Below, one piece after another: positions 979 to 7,477 of a DNA stretch of 7,477 nt (its first letter is position 1; every line of letters begins with the position of its first letter). The DNA is taken from the NCBI GenBank assembly GCA_003661385.1, contig QMWA01000084.1, forward strand, positions 1 to 7,477, given 5' to 3'. The notes beneath the pieces are model-generated. The model was not told the origin of the DNA. It did no database searches and saw only the letters and a list, made by a program, of their open reading frames with translations. This DNA comes from Thermoproteota archaeon (GTDB lineage Archaea; Korarchaeota; Korarchaeia; B14-G2). The translations under genes were made by a program, and so were the position numbers.

Positions 979-2748
979 TTGAGTTTGAGAGCTGTGCTTC
1001 TGGCTGTGGTGCTCTTAGCTTCGCTCTGCCAGGCTTCAGCTTTAGAGAGTGGTGTGAGTGTAACTCTGGAGTTCAGGGGGATCTCTGTTGAGGAAGCTGA
1101 CAGGTACGCTGCTGTCAGGGTTGATGACCTGGGGTATATGGGTGATCCTGGGAGGCCTAGGCTGCCATGTGGAGTCTACCATGTCCTGCTTCCTCCTGGG
1201 GCAGTCAGGGTTGAGGTTGAAGCTCAGCCATCTGATGCTGTTGAGCTCAGGGTGAGTAAGCCTGTTGAGCCAGCTCAGCCTCCAGCCTGCCCTCTCATCG
1301 AGTATAGGGCTGCTCAGCTTGACTGGGGAGTCTATGGGTCAAGCTCATTCTACCCTGGGGTGCTCTGTGAGGCTGATGGCATCGGCTTCCTTAGGGGGCT
1401 TAGAGTAGCTAGAGTCAGGGTTTACCCAGTGCAGTATGCTCCAGCTGAGGGAAGGATCGTCTTCTACAGGAGGATCAACATCAGGCTTAGGATAGTGGAG
1501 TGGGGGAGCCAGGGTAGGGTCTGGCTGACACGGGAGGTAGCTGAGTGGGCTGAGAGCAGGGCTCTGAACTCAGGTGAGCTAAGCGAGTACCTGCCTTATA
1601 TGGCTCGCAGCCCCTCAGTAGACTACCTGATTGTGACCAGGGAGGTGTTTCAGCCACACCTCCAGCCTCTGGTTGAGCTCAAGCAAGCTCTGGGGCTCTC
1701 GGTTGAGGTTGTGACTGTAGAGAGCATCCTGGGAAGCTACCCTGGGAGAGACATACCAGAGAAGATCAGGAGCTGCATTCAAAGCTACTACCAGCAGCAT
1801 GGAACCAGCTATGTCCTCTTGGTCGGTGGAGTAGACCCTGATGCCATCAACCACCCAGACACCTTAGCCTATGACTGGGAGGTTCCAACTAGGTACATCT
1901 ACAACCCAGATGAGACAGCTGAGTACACTCACACACCGGACTTCACCCCCTCAGACTACTACTATGCTGGGCTAGATGGCACCTGGGATGGCGACGGCGA
2001 TGGGGTGTTTGGGGAGTCTGCGCTATACAGTGGCACTGGAGTTGATGAGGCAGACTGGTATCCTGAGGTCTATGTCGGTAGGCTGACGGTATACGAGGTG
2101 GAGGAGCTTCAGAGCTACGTCCAGAAGCTCCAGGCCTTTGAAGCTGCCCCAGAGAACCAGCAGTGCTTCCTGCTCCTTGGAGCTATAAGCAACTACTGGA
2201 ATGAGGACAAGGATGGAGACGGGTACCCAGACTTCTCTCCAGAGCAGCACACCGACGAGGCTGAGCTAAAGGAGGCTATTGCAACAGAAGTCAGCACTAT
2301 ACCCTGCGTGAAGCTCTACGAGGCCTTTGAGAACCTCACTGAAGAGAATGTTGTAGCTGCCATAGAGGGGTACAAGCCTCTGCTGGTGAACTTCGCCGGC
2401 CACGGCAGCGTCACATCGATTATGAGGAAGTGGGGGAGCGACGAGGATGGGAACGGGCTCATAGACCAGTATGAGCTGCACACTGCTCCAGCCTTGAGCT
2501 TCGACTCAGCTGCTCAGCTGGAGAACCCGCCCTTCATAATGTACGCTGACGCGTGCCTGACAGCTTACATAGACCACCCAGACTACTGGAGCCTTGCTGA
2601 CGCCCTAGTGGTGAAGTGCAGCACAGGTGGGGCTGTAGCCTACGTAGGTGGAACCAGAGTCACCTGGTATAGGCCTGGGAGCCTCTGGGCTGAACAGGGA
2701 GCTAGACTGGAGGTTCTGGGGAGAGTACTTCTGGAATGGGAGGACTAG
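979..2748 (+). CDS. Secreted gingipain-like (C25) cysteine peptidase, 5' half of a frame-disrupted C25-C11 gene
   Basis: The product is a secreted cysteine endopeptidase of clan CD. Residues 1-21 form a signal peptide with an Ala-Ser-Ala cleavage site. Residues 22-200 resemble the C25 propeptide (PGRPRLPCGVYHVLLPPGA). The catalytic domain begins near 214 (VDYLIVT). His475 in NFAGHGS and Cys526 in YADACLTA are the expected dyad, followed by CSTGGAVAYVGGTRVTWY, a typical C25 segment. Acidic calcium-type loops occur at 337-342, 410-418 and 488-499, the last with canonical EF-hand spacing. TTG at 979 is chosen because in-frame stops lie just upstream (946, 958) and it places the signal peptide at the terminus. 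The last 16 or so residues (from about 574) are out of frame: the natural continuation of the C25 domain lies in the +1 frame, so the TAG at 2746 is probably not the original end. Family call is firm; activity of the broken product is uncertain. Confidence 0.88.
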   Translation: MSLRAVLLAVVLLASLCQASALESGVSVTLEFRGISVEEADRYAAVRVDDLGYMGDPGRPRLPCGVYHVLLPPGAVRVEVEAQPSDAVELRVSKPVEPAQPPACPLIEYRAAQLDWGVYGSSSFYPGVLCEADGIGFLRGLRVARVRVYPVQYAPAEGRIVFYRRINIRLRIVEWGSQGRVWLTREVAEWAESRALNSGELSEYLPYMARSPSVDYLIVTREVFQPHLQPLVELKQALGLSVEVVTVESILGSYPGRDIPEKIRSCIQSYYQQHGTSYVLLVGGVDPDAINHPDTLAYDWEVPTRYIYNPDETAEYTHTPDFTPSDYYYAGLDGTWDGDGDGVFGESALYSGTGVDEADWYPEVYVGRLTVYEVEELQSYVQKLQAFEAAPENQQCFLLLGAISNYWNEDKDGDGYPDFSPEQHTDEAELKEAIATEVSTIPCVKLYEAFENLTEENVVAAIEGYKPLLVNFAGHGSVTSIMRKWGSDEDGNGLIDQYELHTAPALSFDSAAQLENPPFIMYADACLTAYIDHPDYWSLADALVVKCSTGGAVAYVGGTRVTWYRPGSLWAEQGARLEVLGRVLLEWED

Positions 2749-4657
2749 GCCAGGTGAAGCCCTATACTGGTCTAAGGTAGCCTACATAGAGGGGGGCTCA
2801 TGCGACCTCAGCAGCGAAATGGACAGGAAAGACCTGCTAGCCTACGTGCTGATAGGAGATCCAGCTGCAACCTACAGGAGAGGAGCTCCACTCCATGCGA
2901 AGTGGACTTTCATGGTCTACCTGGCAGCAGACAACAACCTAGAGGAGCTTGGGATCATAGACATCAACGAGATGGAGGCAATAGGCTCAACCCAAGACGT
3001 TAATGTAGTGGTTCAGGTCGATAGAGCCCCAGGATACGACACATCGAATGGAGACTGGACCACAACAAGGAGATACTACATAGTGAAGGACAGCAATGGA
3101 ACAGACACCCAGATAGTCTCAGCACTCATAGAGGATCTAGGTGAAGTGAACATGGGTGACCCTCAGGCTCTAGCTGACTTCCTGCTCTGGGCTATGCAGG
3201 AGTACCCAGCAGACCACTACTGCTTAGTGCTCTGGGGGCATGGTGGAGGCTGGAGGCATAGGAGGCCTACTAGAGACGTGTGCTACGACGACACTGATGT
3301 GGACTACCTGAGCACACTTGAACTCGAGCAGGCCTTGGCTCAAGTCTACCAGCAGACCACGGGCAGGGTGGATGTCATAGCCATGGACGCTTGCCTCATG
3401 GGGATGATAGAGGTAGGGTACCAGCTGAGCAGCTACATCCAGGTCTTCGTGGCCTCAGAGGAGGAGGTGCCTGGAGACGGGTTCCCATACGACATGATAC
3501 TTGAGGCGCTAGCAGCGAGCCCTGACATGACACCAGAGCAGCTAGGCCAGGTGATCGTCCAGAAGTACAAGAGCTACTACACAACCACATTCCCATATGA
3601 GAACGCCACGATAGCAGCCTTCACTGGAAGCGGCCTCCAGAGCATAGCCTCAGCCCTAAACACCTTCGCACAGTCCCTGATGGAGGCTCTGGAGGCGCAC
3701 AGGGACAAGATAGCTCAGGCTAGAGACGAGAGCCAGGTGATATGCTTCAGCTACTACAGAGACCTCTACAGCTTCGCTGAGAGAGCTAGAGCTCTGGTCC
3801 CAGACAGCTCTGTCAGGAGCGCAGCGCAGCAGCTCATGAATGCCATAAGAAGCGCTAGGCTAGCTGAATACCACGGCACAGGCAGGCCTAAAGCGCAGGG
3901 GATCTCAGTCTACTGGCCTCTCGAGGAAGACTACATCCCAGACTACGAGTCGCTGAAGCTCTCAGGAGCCACGAGCTGGGATGAGTTCCTCCAGGCCTTC
4001 TACGGCAGGGCAGTGGGGCTAGCTAAGCTGGTGAGCTGGATAATAGAGAACCCCCTGGTCTACCTGATCCTCCCAGACAACCAGGGGAAGCCTGTCGGGG
4101 AGCTGCCTCCGATAAACGCCTCAGTAAGCGACTGGACTGCAGCAGGGTACATAGCAGGGATAGCAGCTCATGAAGTCCTCTGCTACGACACATACCCTGA
4201 TGTCGTAGACCAGAGCACAGGCAGGCTGCTGGCTCCAGAGGGCTATGGGCTCATCCTCCTAGGAGGCCAGATAGTCAGCATACCAGTCTGGTACTATGAG
4301 GTGGCTGCAGGTGAGACACCAGTCTACCCAGCTTACAACAGCAGTGGGGTATGGTTCGTCCACAGGGAGACAGGCACTCCGATACCAGGCACATATCTCA
4401 CGTGGTCTGACCTCAACTCTGGGAAGGACATGTTCATAGTAGAGCTCTTCACAGACTCAGAAGGCAGATACGTCCTCATAGTCTACGGGATAGGCTGGAG
4501 AGGCACCTTTGCAGCAGCACTGTACTTCGACAAGCAGATGTGGCCCGACATCCAACACCACTACTATAGCTGGTACATAGTGTCGTGGACAGACAACGGG
4601 AATGGCAGAGTAGACGAGCCTGGAGCAGACACCTACACGGTGGTAGCCCACGGCTAG
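2648..4657 (+). CDS. Clostripain-like (C11) peptidase with S-layer-like C-terminus, 3' half of a frame-disrupted C25-C11 gene
   Basis: Genuine coding begins near 2700, not at the nominal GTG 2648. The first 17 or so residues translate C25 sequence in the wrong frame, then ELDWRFWGEYFWNGR and RPGEALYWSKVAYIEG complete the C25 domain. The C11 domain follows from about residue 84: KWTFMVYLAADNNLE, then catalytic His198 in LWGHGGGW and Cys249 in AMDACLMGMIEV, both in the correct family motifs. Residues from about 465 to 669 resemble archaeal S-layer protein domains (YGLILLGGQIVS; RYVLIVYGIGWRGTFAAA; SWTDNGNGRVDEP), suggesting attachment to or similarity with the surface layer; this part is less certain. 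Alone the frame has no signal peptide, so it would not be exported. It overlaps the upstream frame by 101 bases. The intact protein would be a two-protease polyprotein of about 1,225 residues. Substrate unknown. Confidence 0.85.
   Translation: MEPESPGIGLGASGLNRELDWRFWGEYFWNGRTRPGEALYWSKVAYIEGGSCDLSSEMDRKDLLAYVLIGDPAATYRRGAPLHAKWTFMVYLAADNNLEELGIIDINEMEAIGSTQDVNVVVQVDRAPGYDTSNGDWTTTRRYYIVKDSNGTDTQIVSALIEDLGEVNMGDPQALADFLLWAMQEYPADHYCLVLWGHGGGWRHRRPTRDVCYDDTDVDYLSTLELEQALAQVYQQTTGRVDVIAMDACLMGMIEVGYQLSSYIQVFVASEEEVPGDGFPYDMILEALAASPDMTPEQLGQVIVQKYKSYYTTTFPYENATIAAFTGSGLQSIASALNTFAQSLMEALEAHRDKIAQARDESQVICFSYYRDLYSFAERARALVPDSSVRSAAQQLMNAIRSARLAEYHGTGRPKAQGISVYWPLEEDYIPDYESLKLSGATSWDEFLQAFYGRAVGLAKLVSWIIENPLVYLILPDNQGKPVGELPPINASVSDWTAAGYIAGIAAHEVLCYDTYPDVVDQSTGRLLAPEGYGLILLGGQIVSIPVWYYEVAAGETPVYPAYNSSGVWFVHRETGTPIPGTYLTWSDLNSGKDMFIVELFTDSEGRYVLIVYGIGWRGTFAAALYFDKQMWPDIQHHYYSWYIVSWTDNGNGRVDEPGADTYTVVAHG
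2697..2699 (+). other. Probable frameshift site joining the C25 and C11 frames
   Basis: Family-like C25 sequence is in frame 1 up to PGSLWAEQ (about 2697) and in frame 2 from ELDWRFWGEY (about 2700). Removing one base from GGG at 2697-2699 restores a continuous LWAEQELDWRFW. One extra base, a sequencing or assembly error, or +1 recoding would all produce this. No classical -1 slippery heptamer is visible and the direction is wrong for -1 slippage. The exact base cannot be fixed; the change lies between about 2685 and 2703. Confidence 0.75.
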
Positions 4658-4804: not shown

Positions 4805-5080
4805 TTGCCAAACGCCCCAGCCTACGCTAAGGTTCTGGTTCCCTACTCGATTGCCAACTTCGGTGCCTTGTTCGACATCGCTGGCCTCGCCATAGAAGGG
4901 GTTTCAGAGGAGATTTCAGTCAGGTTCCACCCCGGTGAGGAGGGCTTTGAAGTAAGGGTTAGGGGGCTGGCTCCTGCTCCTCGCGCGTGCCAGGAGGCTG
5001 CTGGGTTTGGTTCAATGCCGTTTGGAGGTTATAGGTATGTTTTTAAGGGCAGCTCCCCTGTGCTTGAGGGTTTTGGTTGA
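4805..5080 (+). pseudogene. Truncated homoserine kinase (ThrB) N-terminal fragment, GHMP kinase family
   Basis: This encodes 91 residues against roughly 300 in an intact homoserine kinase, which phosphorylates homoserine in threonine synthesis. Residues 8-30 (AKVLVPYSIANFGALFDIAG and on) match the family opening V.aPaSsANLGpGFDvlGlAl. The tail GGYRYVFKGSSPVLEGFG fits the stretch leading into the phosphate-binding loop (KGiP...GLGSSgA) but ends at the GFG, before the serines. The loop and everything after it are missing, so it cannot be an active kinase. TTG 4805 is chosen because an in-frame TAG lies at 4790 and the family motif starts at once. Its TGA (5078-5080) overlaps the TTG of the A2M gene, so translating it may couple to the downstream gene. 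Most likely a gene truncated by rearrangement, now serving as a leader cistron. Confidence 0.6.
5066..5070 (+). promoter_or_regulatory. Shine-Dalgarno-like site supporting the TTG 5077 start
   Basis: GAGGG lies six bases before TTG 5077, inside the end of the thrB remnant. An in-frame TGA at 5065-5067 means the A2M frame cannot begin earlier, so this site and the hydrophobic N-terminus that follows fix the start. Confidence 0.5.
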
Positions 5081-7477
5081 GGAGGCGTGTAGCGGTTTTT
5101 CTGAGCGCTGTAGCTGTCTTGGGCTTGGCTTTGAATGCCGGCAGGCTTCTGCTCCTCTTCAGGCTTGGTGTGTCTGCTAGGACATATGGCGAGTGGGTTG
5201 TTGGGTTTAGGGTTCCTGTCAGCGTCTACGTGGTGAATGCTCTTACTGGTGGTGGTAGGAGTGCTAGTGTTAGGCTCCTGCTCATTGGGAAGAACTCTAC
5301 TCTTGAGCTCTGTGGGTTCAAGGTTGATGGCTCTAGGACTGTGAGCGTGAGGGTTCCTGACGTTGAGAGCGGGAGGTATAGGCTTAGGGTTGAGGCTAGG
5401 AGCTTGCTTGCCTGGGATGCTGTCGAGGTCCCTGTCAAGGTCAGGAGGTCTTATAGGATCTTGATCACCGTGGATAAGCCCTGGTACAAGCCTGGCCAGA
5501 CTATAATGTTCAGAGCTCTTGTCTGGAGGGCTTCTGAGGGCGGTTACAGGCCTGCTTGCAACGCCAGCGTCAGGGTTTCGCTCGTTGGCCCTAGGGGGAC
5601 TAAGCTCTTTGGGAAGGTTCTGGTGGCAGATGAGTTTGGTGTTGTCTCATGTGAGATCCCCACCTCACCTGAGGTTGAGGAAGGCAGATACCGGGTTGTA
5701 GCTGAGGTCGATGGCTGCAAGCAGGAGGTTGTGGTCAATGTGAGGAGGTATGTGCTGCCGAAGTTCAAGGTTGAAGTTAGCCTTGATAGAAGCTGGTATC
5801 TGCTTGGTGACGTGATCAAAGGCGTTGTTAACGCCAGCTACTTCTTCGGGAAGCCTGTCTCAAACGCCAGCGTCTACCTGAGGGCTTCAGCCTACCTCGG
5901 TGAGTGGAGGTGCTTCTGGCAGTACTCTGGCAAAACCGATGAGAGAGGGCTGATGGAGTTTGAGCTTGATGCACCCAAGTACCTAGTTGGGCTTGAGCCA
6001 TACCTGAAGAAAGCTCCTCTGCAGCTTAATGTGACCGTGGTGGATCAGGCTGGCCACGCTGAGGAAGCCAGCCTGCCGGTCCTCGTGAGCGACACGCCCT
6101 TCATAGTTGGTGTCGTCACCCTCAAGGATAGGTTCCTGCCTGGTGAGCCCTATAAGCTCTACGTCACTGTCAGGCACCCTGATGGCTCTCCTGCTAGCGG
6201 AGCTAAGATCCTTGCTGCGCTAGCTGCTGGAGGCAAGGTGTTTCATAAGCTTGAGCTTGAGGCCAGTGAAGCTGGGGTAGCTGAGCTCACCTTCACCCCA
6301 CCTGATGTAAAGGAGGTTGAGCTCCAGCTTACTGTCTCCAGGGGAGGCTATGCTTCAAGCTGTACCTTCAAGCTCTTCTCTCAGAGGCCTAGGCGTGGCG
6401 TCTTGATCAGGGTGTACTCTGATAAGCCAAGGTACAGGGTTGGGGAGGAGATTAAAGTCAAGGTTCTCGTGAAGAGGAGCGGAAACGTCAGTGTGAGGAC
6501 TGTTTACCTCGATGTCGTGAGCCCACTTGACAGGTCTACGCTTTACACTGGGGCAGCTGAAGCTGAAGGCGGTGTAGCTGAGTTCAGAGTTGTAGCTAGG
6601 GAGACCTTCGCTCCCTTCGTAGTCGTGAGAGCGTATGCCATATCACCTGACTTCGGCTTCTACTCTGACTGGGTTAAAGTCGATGTAGAGCCTCCTAGAG
6701 AGCTTAAGGTCGAGGTTGAAGCTGATAAAGGCAGCTACCTCCCAGGGGAGGAGGCTAAGCTCAGGATCAGGGTGCATGGGCCAGGTGGAGAAGGCAGGGA
6801 TGCTGTGGTCTGCTTGTGTGTCGTTGACAGCTCAGTCCTAGCCCTAGAGGAGAGGGCACCGGGCTTCGAGGAGGTGTTCTACACGCTAGCAGAGGAGTAC
6901 CAGGAGATCCAGTGGGAGATCCATGAGATCGAGGAGGCTAGGATAGAGAGTAGAGCTAGGCACATTAGGGAAGCTGAGCAGCTCCAGAGGAGGGTGAACT
7001 CAGTGCTGCTAGCAGGCACGTACCTCAGCTTGCTTTCAGCTCCACCAGCTATCCTAGCTATAGGAGCTTACCTCTGGGCTAAAGGCAGAAGGCTTGGGAA
7101 AGGGCTTGTAGCCATAGGTGTAATGGCAACTCTGTATGCCACGTTCTTCATATACATGCCACTCCTCTACATGCTCACCTCACCTCCCATGTGGGGCGAG
7201 GGGGTGGCTCCAAGGCCTCTTGCACCTAAGGGCATAGCTCCTGCAGCTGTCCCTGAGCCTGCGCTCTCTCCCACCGCAACCTTCACTGCAGCTGAGCGTG
7301 GAGAGGAGTTTAAGGAGGTGGCTGAGGGAGAGAGGCCTGAAGCCATGGCTTTGAGGTGGTTCTTCCCTGAGACCTTGTACTGGTGTCCTGAGCTCCCTGT
7401 CTCAGCTCACACTGAGGTGAACTTGAGGCTCGCCCACTCCATTACCACATGGAGTGTTAAGGCTATAGCTAGCACGA
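5077..7477 (+). CDS. Alpha-2-macroglobulin family protein with membrane hairpin in the bait position (3' end beyond window)
   Basis: The frame is open for 800 codons to the window edge. In A2M proteins a protease cuts the bait region and is trapped, usually with a thioester. Residues 1-4 are basic (MRRR) and 5-28 hydrophobic: a signal anchor without a clear cleavage site. Macroglobulin-domain landmarks follow in animal A2M order: TVDKPWYKPGQTIMFRAL (131-148), RRYVLPKFKVEV (223-234), SYFFGKPVSNASV (246-258), CVVDSSVLAL (581-590), RWFFPETLYW (760-769) and HSITTWSVKAIAST (787-800), the start of the A2M domain. Between VDSSV and FPET lies a charged helical stretch (600-639), predicted membrane helices at about 643-667 and 676-700, a basic KGRRLGK loop between them, and a Pro/Ala-rich linker. 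The thioester region (expected GCGEQ) is beyond the window. Family call is firm. Confidence 0.9.
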   Translation, partial: MRRRVAVFLSAVAVLGLALNAGRLLLLFRLGVSARTYGEWVVGFRVPVSVYVVNALTGGGRSASVRLLLIGKNSTLELCGFKVDGSRTVSVRVPDVESGRYRLRVEARSLLAWDAVEVPVKVRRSYRILITVDKPWYKPGQTIMFRALVWRASEGGYRPACNASVRVSLVGPRGTKLFGKVLVADEFGVVSCEIPTSPEVEEGRYRVVAEVDGCKQEVVVNVRRYVLPKFKVEVSLDRSWYLLGDVIKGVVNASYFFGKPVSNASVYLRASAYLGEWRCFWQYSGKTDERGLMEFELDAPKYLVGLEPYLKKAPLQLNVTVVDQAGHAEEASLPVLVSDTPFIVGVVTLKDRFLPGEPYKLYVTVRHPDGSPASGAKILAALAAGGKVFHKLELEASEAGVAELTFTPPDVKEVELQLTVSRGGYASSCTFKLFSQRPRRGVLIRVYSDKPRYRVGEEIKVKVLVKRSGNVSVRTVYLDVVSPLDRSTLYTGAAEAEGGVAEFRVVARETFAPFVVVRAYAISPDFGFYSDWVKVDVEPPRELKVEVEADKGSYLPGEEAKLRIRVHGPGGEGRDAVVCLCVVDSSVLALEERAPGFEEVFYTLAEEYQEIQWEIHEIEEARIESRARHIREAEQLQRRVNSVLLAGTYLSLLSAPPAILAIGAYLWAKGRRLGKGLVAIGVMATLYATFFIYMPLLYMLTSPPMWGEGVAPRPLAPKGIAPAAVPEPALSPTATFTAAERGEEFKEVAEGERPEAMALRWFFPETLYWCPELPVSAHTEVNLRLAHSITTWSVKAIAST

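What the first reader, a model, noticed from the sequence alone, without database searches (positions are those of the whole stretch)
6901..7345. A2M protein with a transmembrane hairpin where the protease bait region should be
Seen: between VDSSVLAL (residues 583-590) and FPETLYW (763-769) the protein has a charged helical stretch, two hydrophobic segments (about 643-667 and 676-700), a basic KGRRLGK loop and a Pro/Ala-rich linker. Known: in animal A2M this interval is the flexible bait loop cut by target proteases, and it is soluble. Inference: with a signal anchor at the N-terminus, the macroglobulin domains lie outside and the hairpin dips through the membrane with its basic loop in the cytoplasm, which fits the positive-inside rule. 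A bait region threaded through the membrane could let surface proteolysis be sensed or could tether the trap; the outside linker at about 701-750 would be the cleavable part.
Basis: partly seen in the sequence, partly recalled or inferred. Interest (0 to 1): 0.8.

Follow-up and report, generated by a model that had tools for sequence, protein, structure and literature searches.

The report
Macroglobulin with a membrane-spanning bait region
An archaeal relative of the blood protein alpha-2-macroglobulin carries, where the protease-bait loop should be, a pair of membrane-spanning helices; rare relatives in other archaea carry 2 to 10 such helices there, so this is a real and apparently undescribed membrane-built variety of a well-known protease trap.

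Summary
The hairpin is real. ORF 5077-7476 is an A2M-family protein (MG2, MG3, MG4 and bait-region-domain models) cut off by the contig end. Between the end of MG6 (VVDSSVLAL) and FPETLYW it has a charged helix, two strongly hydrophobic segments (643-667, 676-700), a basic loop and a ~57-residue Pro/Ala linker. A 48%-identical homologue from another family of the same phylum keeps all of this, with low identity inside the helices. The missing half is very probably on contig C92: TED with thioester motif GCNEQ plus receptor-binding domain.

The main new result: it is not a one-off. Four other archaeal genomes hold five A2Ms with 6, 6, 8, 8 or 10 membrane segments at the same place; all four complete ones keep GCxEQ. 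Counts are even and positive charges lie in the predicted cytoplasmic loops, so both halves of the trap stay outside. 54 other A2Ms have none. The two types lie on opposite sides of one branch in trees.

Best reading: a membrane-integrated protease trap whose post-hairpin linker is the bait. Trapping is inferred. Bacterial genomes could not be surveyed.

The parts
5077..7476 (+). A2M-family gene, N-terminal half (800 residues, TTG start, open at the contig end)
   Evidence: Pfam MG2 5e-20, A2M_BRD 1e-16, MG3 and MG4 2e-8; contig ends at 7477
5089..5166 (+). N-terminal signal anchor or signal peptide, residues ~5-30, basic residues before it, no lipobox Cys
   Evidence: octanol score -4.4; helix 2-27 in the model; the ordinary archaeal relatives of G258/G241 type have a lipobox-like SGCIG / AGCIG instead
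5461..5715 (+). MG2 domain
   Evidence: Pfam PF01835, residues 129-213
5746..5967 (+). MG3 domain
   Evidence: Pfam PF17791, residues 224-297
6133..6336 (+). MG4 domain
   Evidence: Pfam PF17789, residues 353-420
6409..6846 (+). A2M_BRD (MG5/MG6 part) ending in VVDSSVLAL
   Evidence: Pfam PF07703, residues 445-590, full length of the model
6865..7002 (+). Charged helical stretch 597-642 before the membrane (possible stalk)
   Evidence: single helix 597-668 in the models (low pLDDT); first part 70% identical in the homologue
7003..7077 (+). Membrane segment 1, residues 643-667
   Evidence: octanol -7.7; kept in the homologue at 24% identity
7078..7101 (+). Basic loop, predicted cytoplasmic (AKGRRLGK)
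   Evidence: 4 K/R and no D/E in window and homologue
7102..7176 (+). Membrane segment 2, residues 676-700
   Evidence: octanol -12.5; kept in the homologue at 29% identity
7177..7347 (+). Extracellular Pro/Ala/Glu-rich linker 701-757, proposed bait
   Evidence: 37% identical to the homologue with gaps; an external linker of similar length follows the last membrane segment in all seven membrane-bait proteins
7363..7476 (+). Start of the A2M/MG7 part: FPETLYW (763-769), SITTW (788-792)
   Evidence: alignment with nine archaeal A2Ms; PF00207 1-36 at E 0.085 here, 3e-8 in the homologue

Best explanation
This is a membrane-integrated A2M. The N-terminal MG domains are anchored outside the cell. 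From the end of MG6 a charged helix runs to the membrane, a helical hairpin crosses it and returns, and a flexible extracellular linker of about 57 residues leads back to the rest of the trap (MG7 to the thioester and receptor-binding domains). I think the linker is the working bait: a protease active close to the cell surface cuts it, the C-terminal half is freed from its membrane tether, the molecule collapses, and the thioester (GCNEQ) bonds to the protease while the N-terminal half stays in the membrane. Shown here: domain order, hairpin, its conservation, even segment counts and positive-inside charge in relatives, and CxEQ in all four complete relatives. Inferred: that the C92 piece is the same gene, that the linker is cut, that trapping follows, and that the tether restricts the bait to membrane-near proteases.
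For: A2M domains in order and fold matches to C4/C5/C3/A2ML1. Hairpin hydropathy and conservation with divergence. Six more A2Ms with 2-10 membrane segments at the same place. K+R 79 per 317 residues in predicted inside loops against 9 per 131 outside. Thioester GCNEQ, GCFEQ or GCAEQ kept. External linker of similar length in all and usually the fastest-changing external part, as bait regions are. Both halves of the window protein fall on the membrane-bait side of trees.
Against: No cleavage or trapping data exist. The second half lies on another contig with ~70-85 residues missing between. AlphaFold confidence in the hairpin is low. Helix number differs even within one genus (6 against 10), which is odd if the membrane domain matters to the mechanism. 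The octanol scale counts nine rather than eight segments in G777:C29.
Confidence: 0.5

Rival explanations
1. The hairpin (and the larger membrane domains) is only an anchor or spacer. The protein is a surface-tethered A2M in the manner of lipoprotein or C-terminally anchored A2Ms, and the membrane helices add nothing to the mechanism.
For: TM residues are poorly conserved (24-29%); helix number changes by tandem duplication within a genus; other archaeal A2Ms solve anchoring by a lipobox or, it seems, a C-terminal segment.
Against: An N-terminal anchor is already present in these proteins, so a second one in the middle of the bait is redundant; placing 2-10 segments exactly in the bait is a costly place for a tether.
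Confidence: 0.3
2. The membrane domain transmits a signal or senses cleavage in the membrane: proteolysis outside or inside the membrane moves the helices, and the MG/TED part is a receptor rather than a trap.
For: Polytopic domains of 6-10 segments; G777:C29 has an N-terminal cytoplasmic extension before its anchor with a weak helical-domain match.
Against: Cytoplasmic loops are short and show no known output domain; the thioester is kept, which a pure receptor would not need.
Confidence: 0.12
3. The two segments are buried helices or a soluble helical insert, not membrane-spanning.
For: Shuffles of the interval give two such segments in about 1% of cases; A2Ms of the G327 phylum have long soluble helical-looking inserts in the same interval.
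Against: Octanol scores -7.7 and -12.5; basic loop without acids; consistent positive-inside pattern over 2-10 segments in seven proteins; even counts; no such segment in 54 other baits.
Confidence: 0.06

Closest known systems
Bacterial type I A2M (Salmonella SaA2M, E. coli ECAM)
   Same: MG domains, bait interval between MG6 and the A2M domain, TED with CxEQ; cell-associated monomeric-type trap (PMC5764988)
   Different: Bait is soluble and exposed; anchoring is by other means, not through the bait
Archaeal A2M/TEP homologues with CxEQ (Makarova et al. 2021, PMC8416519)
   Same: Same family and domain of life; TED with CxEQ, signal peptide
   Different: No text there mentions membrane segments in the bait; figures and supplements were not seen
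Methanosarcina-type archaeal A2Ms found here (G258, G241 and others)
   Same: 25-31% identity over the shared domains, same motifs VDxSV, FPETxxW, SITTW
   Different: Soluble bait of about 105-140 residues, lipobox-like N-terminus, GCGEQ; other side of the tree branch
Animal A2M, A2ML1, CD109, TEP1, complement C3/C4/C5
   Same: Sequence and fold relatives of both halves; C3-type proteins also hold an inserted domain (ANA) in the bait interval (own knowledge)
   Different: All soluble or lipid-anchored; the insert is never membrane-spanning (own knowledge)
Bacterial type II A2M (MagD)
   Same: Membrane-associated A2M with a bait (PMC5764988)
   Different: MagD lacks the thioester and depends on a separate membrane protein, MagB; here GCNEQ is present and the membrane part is in the chain itself

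Membership tests
Alpha-2-macroglobulin family | Serial MG domains incl. MG2 and bait-region domain | tested here: met
   Pfam hits above cut-off in order; fold match E 1e-25
Alpha-2-macroglobulin family | Thioester domain with CxEQ | tested here: inconclusive
   GCNEQ and TED (7e-32) in an 810-aa frame at the end of contig C92; contig join not proven
Alpha-2-macroglobulin family | C-terminal receptor-binding / MG10-type domain | tested here: inconclusive
   A2M_recep 4e-6 in the C92 frame; same caveat
Alpha-2-macroglobulin family | Flexible, soluble bait between MG6 and FPETxxW | tested here: inconclusive
   About half of the interval is a membrane hairpin; a soluble Pro/Ala linker of ~57 residues remains
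Alpha-2-macroglobulin family | Cleavage of the bait leads to protease trapping | not testable with these tools
   Needs biochemistry
Membrane-bait A2M (class proposed here) | Even number of membrane segments between MG6 and FP[ED]T, positive-inside, followed by an extracellular linker; groups apart from soluble-bait A2Ms | tested here: met
   2 segments, basic loop, linker; one branch separates the groups, support 100/99 (N half) and 100/98 (C half)
Lipoprotein A2M | Lipobox cysteine after the signal peptide | tested here: not met
   No Cys near the end of the N-terminal hydrophobic segment

The most novel reading that the evidence does not exclude
A distinct class of A2Ms in which the bait is a membrane domain that takes part in the mechanism: proteolysis at or in the membrane is sensed through the helices, so that the trap guards the membrane itself or reports inside the cell.
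Probability: 0.2. Interest if true: 0.85.

Novelty: new variant of a known kind. Interest (0 to 1): 0.6.

Why it matters
The bait is the part that makes A2Ms work: it is thought to be free, flexible and cut by almost any protease. Proteins that keep the macroglobulin fold and the thioester but thread this segment through the membrane 2 to 10 times would show that the trap can be rebuilt as an integral membrane protein. They offer a direct test of whether archaea use A2Ms against membrane-near or self proteases, and they give a recognisable architecture (even number of membrane segments between VDxS and FP[ED]T, plus CxEQ) that domain annotation alone does not flag.

Tried and rejected
Frame artefact: rejected; one open frame, with a homologue in the same frame. 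The homologue has one in-frame TGA far upstream of the bait.

Burial in an MG fold: AlphaFold (two-row alignments only) gives two long helices, but with pLDDT too low to count for much.

Viral contigs gave nothing. Plasmids gave no match with the bait region and ten records with the whole G197 protein (Deinococcota, enterobacteria, Phocaeicola); one, Meiothermus, was fetched and has no membrane segment in its bait.

Known membrane family in the hairpin or the larger domains: only weak, sub-threshold DUF2157-type matches, treated as hydrophobic chance.

Functional link to the two protease genes upstream in the window: not conserved next to the homologue, so not used.

Single origin of the membrane bait: trees allow it, but the root is unknown and the G296 group is very divergent. 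Left open.

Full report
OBSERVATION. The window is a whole contig (C84, 7477 bases) of a 1.74-Mb archaeal assembly in 206 contigs. ORF 5077-7476 (TTG start, 800 residues, open at the contig end) hits Pfam MG2, A2M_BRD, MG3 and MG4 above cut-off. By sequence its relatives with solved structures are complement C4/C3/C5, A2M and TEP1, and the AlphaFold model retrieves the same set by fold (best E 1e-25). The octanol scale singles out the two segments as the most membrane-like of the protein (-7.7 and -12.5; beta-strand segments give at best -3.0). Composition shuffles give two such segments in 0.8% of cases, so hydropathy in this one protein is suggestive only.

CONSERVATION. One other genome of the same phylum (29 genomes held), from a different family, has a homologue: G028, record JAOZGF010000074.1, 'Thermoproteota archaeon isolate INS_M21_B31'. 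It is 48% identical and has the same helix, hairpin, basic loop (KSKHRK for KGRRLGK) and Pro/Ala linker. Identity by part: MG5/6 58%, first helix after MG6 70%, TM1 24%, TM2 29%, linker 37%, FPET region 74%. The hairpin is thus kept as a property rather than as a sequence. The homologue's contig also ends inside the gene and carries one in-frame TGA well upstream of the bait.

THE OTHER HALF. The only TED hit of the genome is on contig C92, in an 810-residue open frame that begins at that contig's end. It has the TED, the receptor-binding domain and GCNEQ. Measured on complete relatives, about 70-85 residues separate the end of C84 from the start of C92, and the contigs do not overlap. Trees of N-halves and C-halves both put the window pieces on the membrane-bait side. 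I take C92 as very probably the same gene; this is inference.

THE CLASS. A profile of the region found, in another archaeal phylum, a 1712-residue A2M with eight hydrophobic segments between MG6 and FPETLYV and with GCFEQ; the same genome also has an ordinary A2M. Wider searches found G296 (six segments, cut by its contig end), G777:C2 (six, GCAEQ), G776 (ten, GCAEQ) and G777:C29 (eight by Kyte-Doolittle, nine by the octanol scale; GCFEQ). G776 and G777 belong to one genus; the extra four segments of G776 repeat its own preceding unit, a tandem duplication that keeps the count even. In total 61 distinct A2M frames had a delimitable bait interval: 54 without any membrane segment and 7 with (that script drew the window's own interval too long and counted a beta-strand, so its printed 3 should read 2). 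A2Ms of a further phylum (that of G327) have none in the bait either.

TOPOLOGY. If the MG domains lie outside, loops 1, 3, 5... of the bait domain must lie inside. Summed over the seven proteins, K+R is 79 in 317 loop residues on that side and 9 in 131 on the other; acids are common outside (sums). All segment counts are even by Kyte-Doolittle (2, 2, 6, 6, 8, 8, 10), as needed to return to the side where the thioester half lies. N-termini fit: a single anchor with basic residues before it, or two segments around a basic loop in the G296 group.

MECHANISM. In A2Ms bait cleavage triggers collapse and thioester bonding to the protease (for bacterial type I: PMC5764988). All membrane-bait proteins keep, after the last segment, an extracellular linker of roughly 55-70 residues, usually the least conserved external part (19% against 39-46% in the G197/G777:C29 pair; 50% against 71-81% in G777:C2/G776), and all four complete ones keep CxEQ. 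I therefore think the linker is the bait and the membrane domain its tether. Cutting would free the thioester half while the N-terminal half stays in the membrane. This step is inferred. The main rival is a plain anchor or spacer, favoured by weak TM conservation and by helix-number change within a genus. A signalling role is possible but has no positive evidence.

KNOWN OR NOT. Archaeal A2M homologues with CxEQ are described (PMC8416519), with varied domain organisation. No text there, nor any paper found in ten searches, mentions membrane segments in the bait. Figures, supplements and subscription papers were not seen, and bacterial genomes could not be reached with the scans left. Hence 'new variant of a known kind', with the bacterial question open.

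LIMITS. AlphaFold had two-row alignments only, and the hairpin region has pLDDT of about 40-71. Topology rests on hydropathy and charge, not on a trained predictor. The N-terminal segment could be a cleaved signal peptide instead of an anchor.

Noticed in passing
window 979-4657 (+): A C25 (gingipain-type) peptidase ORF (979-2748) and a C11 (clostripain-type) ORF (2648-4657) overlap in different frames; the first ~85 residues of the second read like the end of a C25 domain. Probably a C25-C11 double protease gene with a frameshift, or two genes.
   Followed up: partly
window 4805-5080 (+): 91-residue ORF with a weak homoserine-kinase N-terminal signature (PDB 6cyz, E 0.005), probably a gene remnant between the proteases and the A2M.
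   Followed up: partly
L017:2594-2599 (G028 homologue): In-frame TGA in the MG2 region of the homologous A2M gene: a pseudogene or an assembly error.
   Followed up: no
L138, L139, L140, L142 (phylum of G327): A2Ms with GCxEQ, apparently without a signal peptide and with a soluble insert of roughly 280-340 residues in the bait interval; possibly cytoplasmic thioester proteins.
   Followed up: no
L090:1301-6540, L105:906-8608, L106:2362-9677: Conserved gene trio: 211-residue five-segment membrane protein, ~613-residue C-terminally anchored protein, membrane-bait A2M with overlapping start and stop.
   Followed up: partly
L105:909-6146 (G776:C41): Tandem duplication of a four-segment unit inside the membrane bait, making 10 segments from 6.
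   Followed up: yes
L088 (G283:C79), 1966-aa frame, residues ~1678-1955: A large A2M with GCVEQ whose C-terminus runs on into a polytopic transporter-like domain with about nine hydrophobic segments.
   Followed up: no
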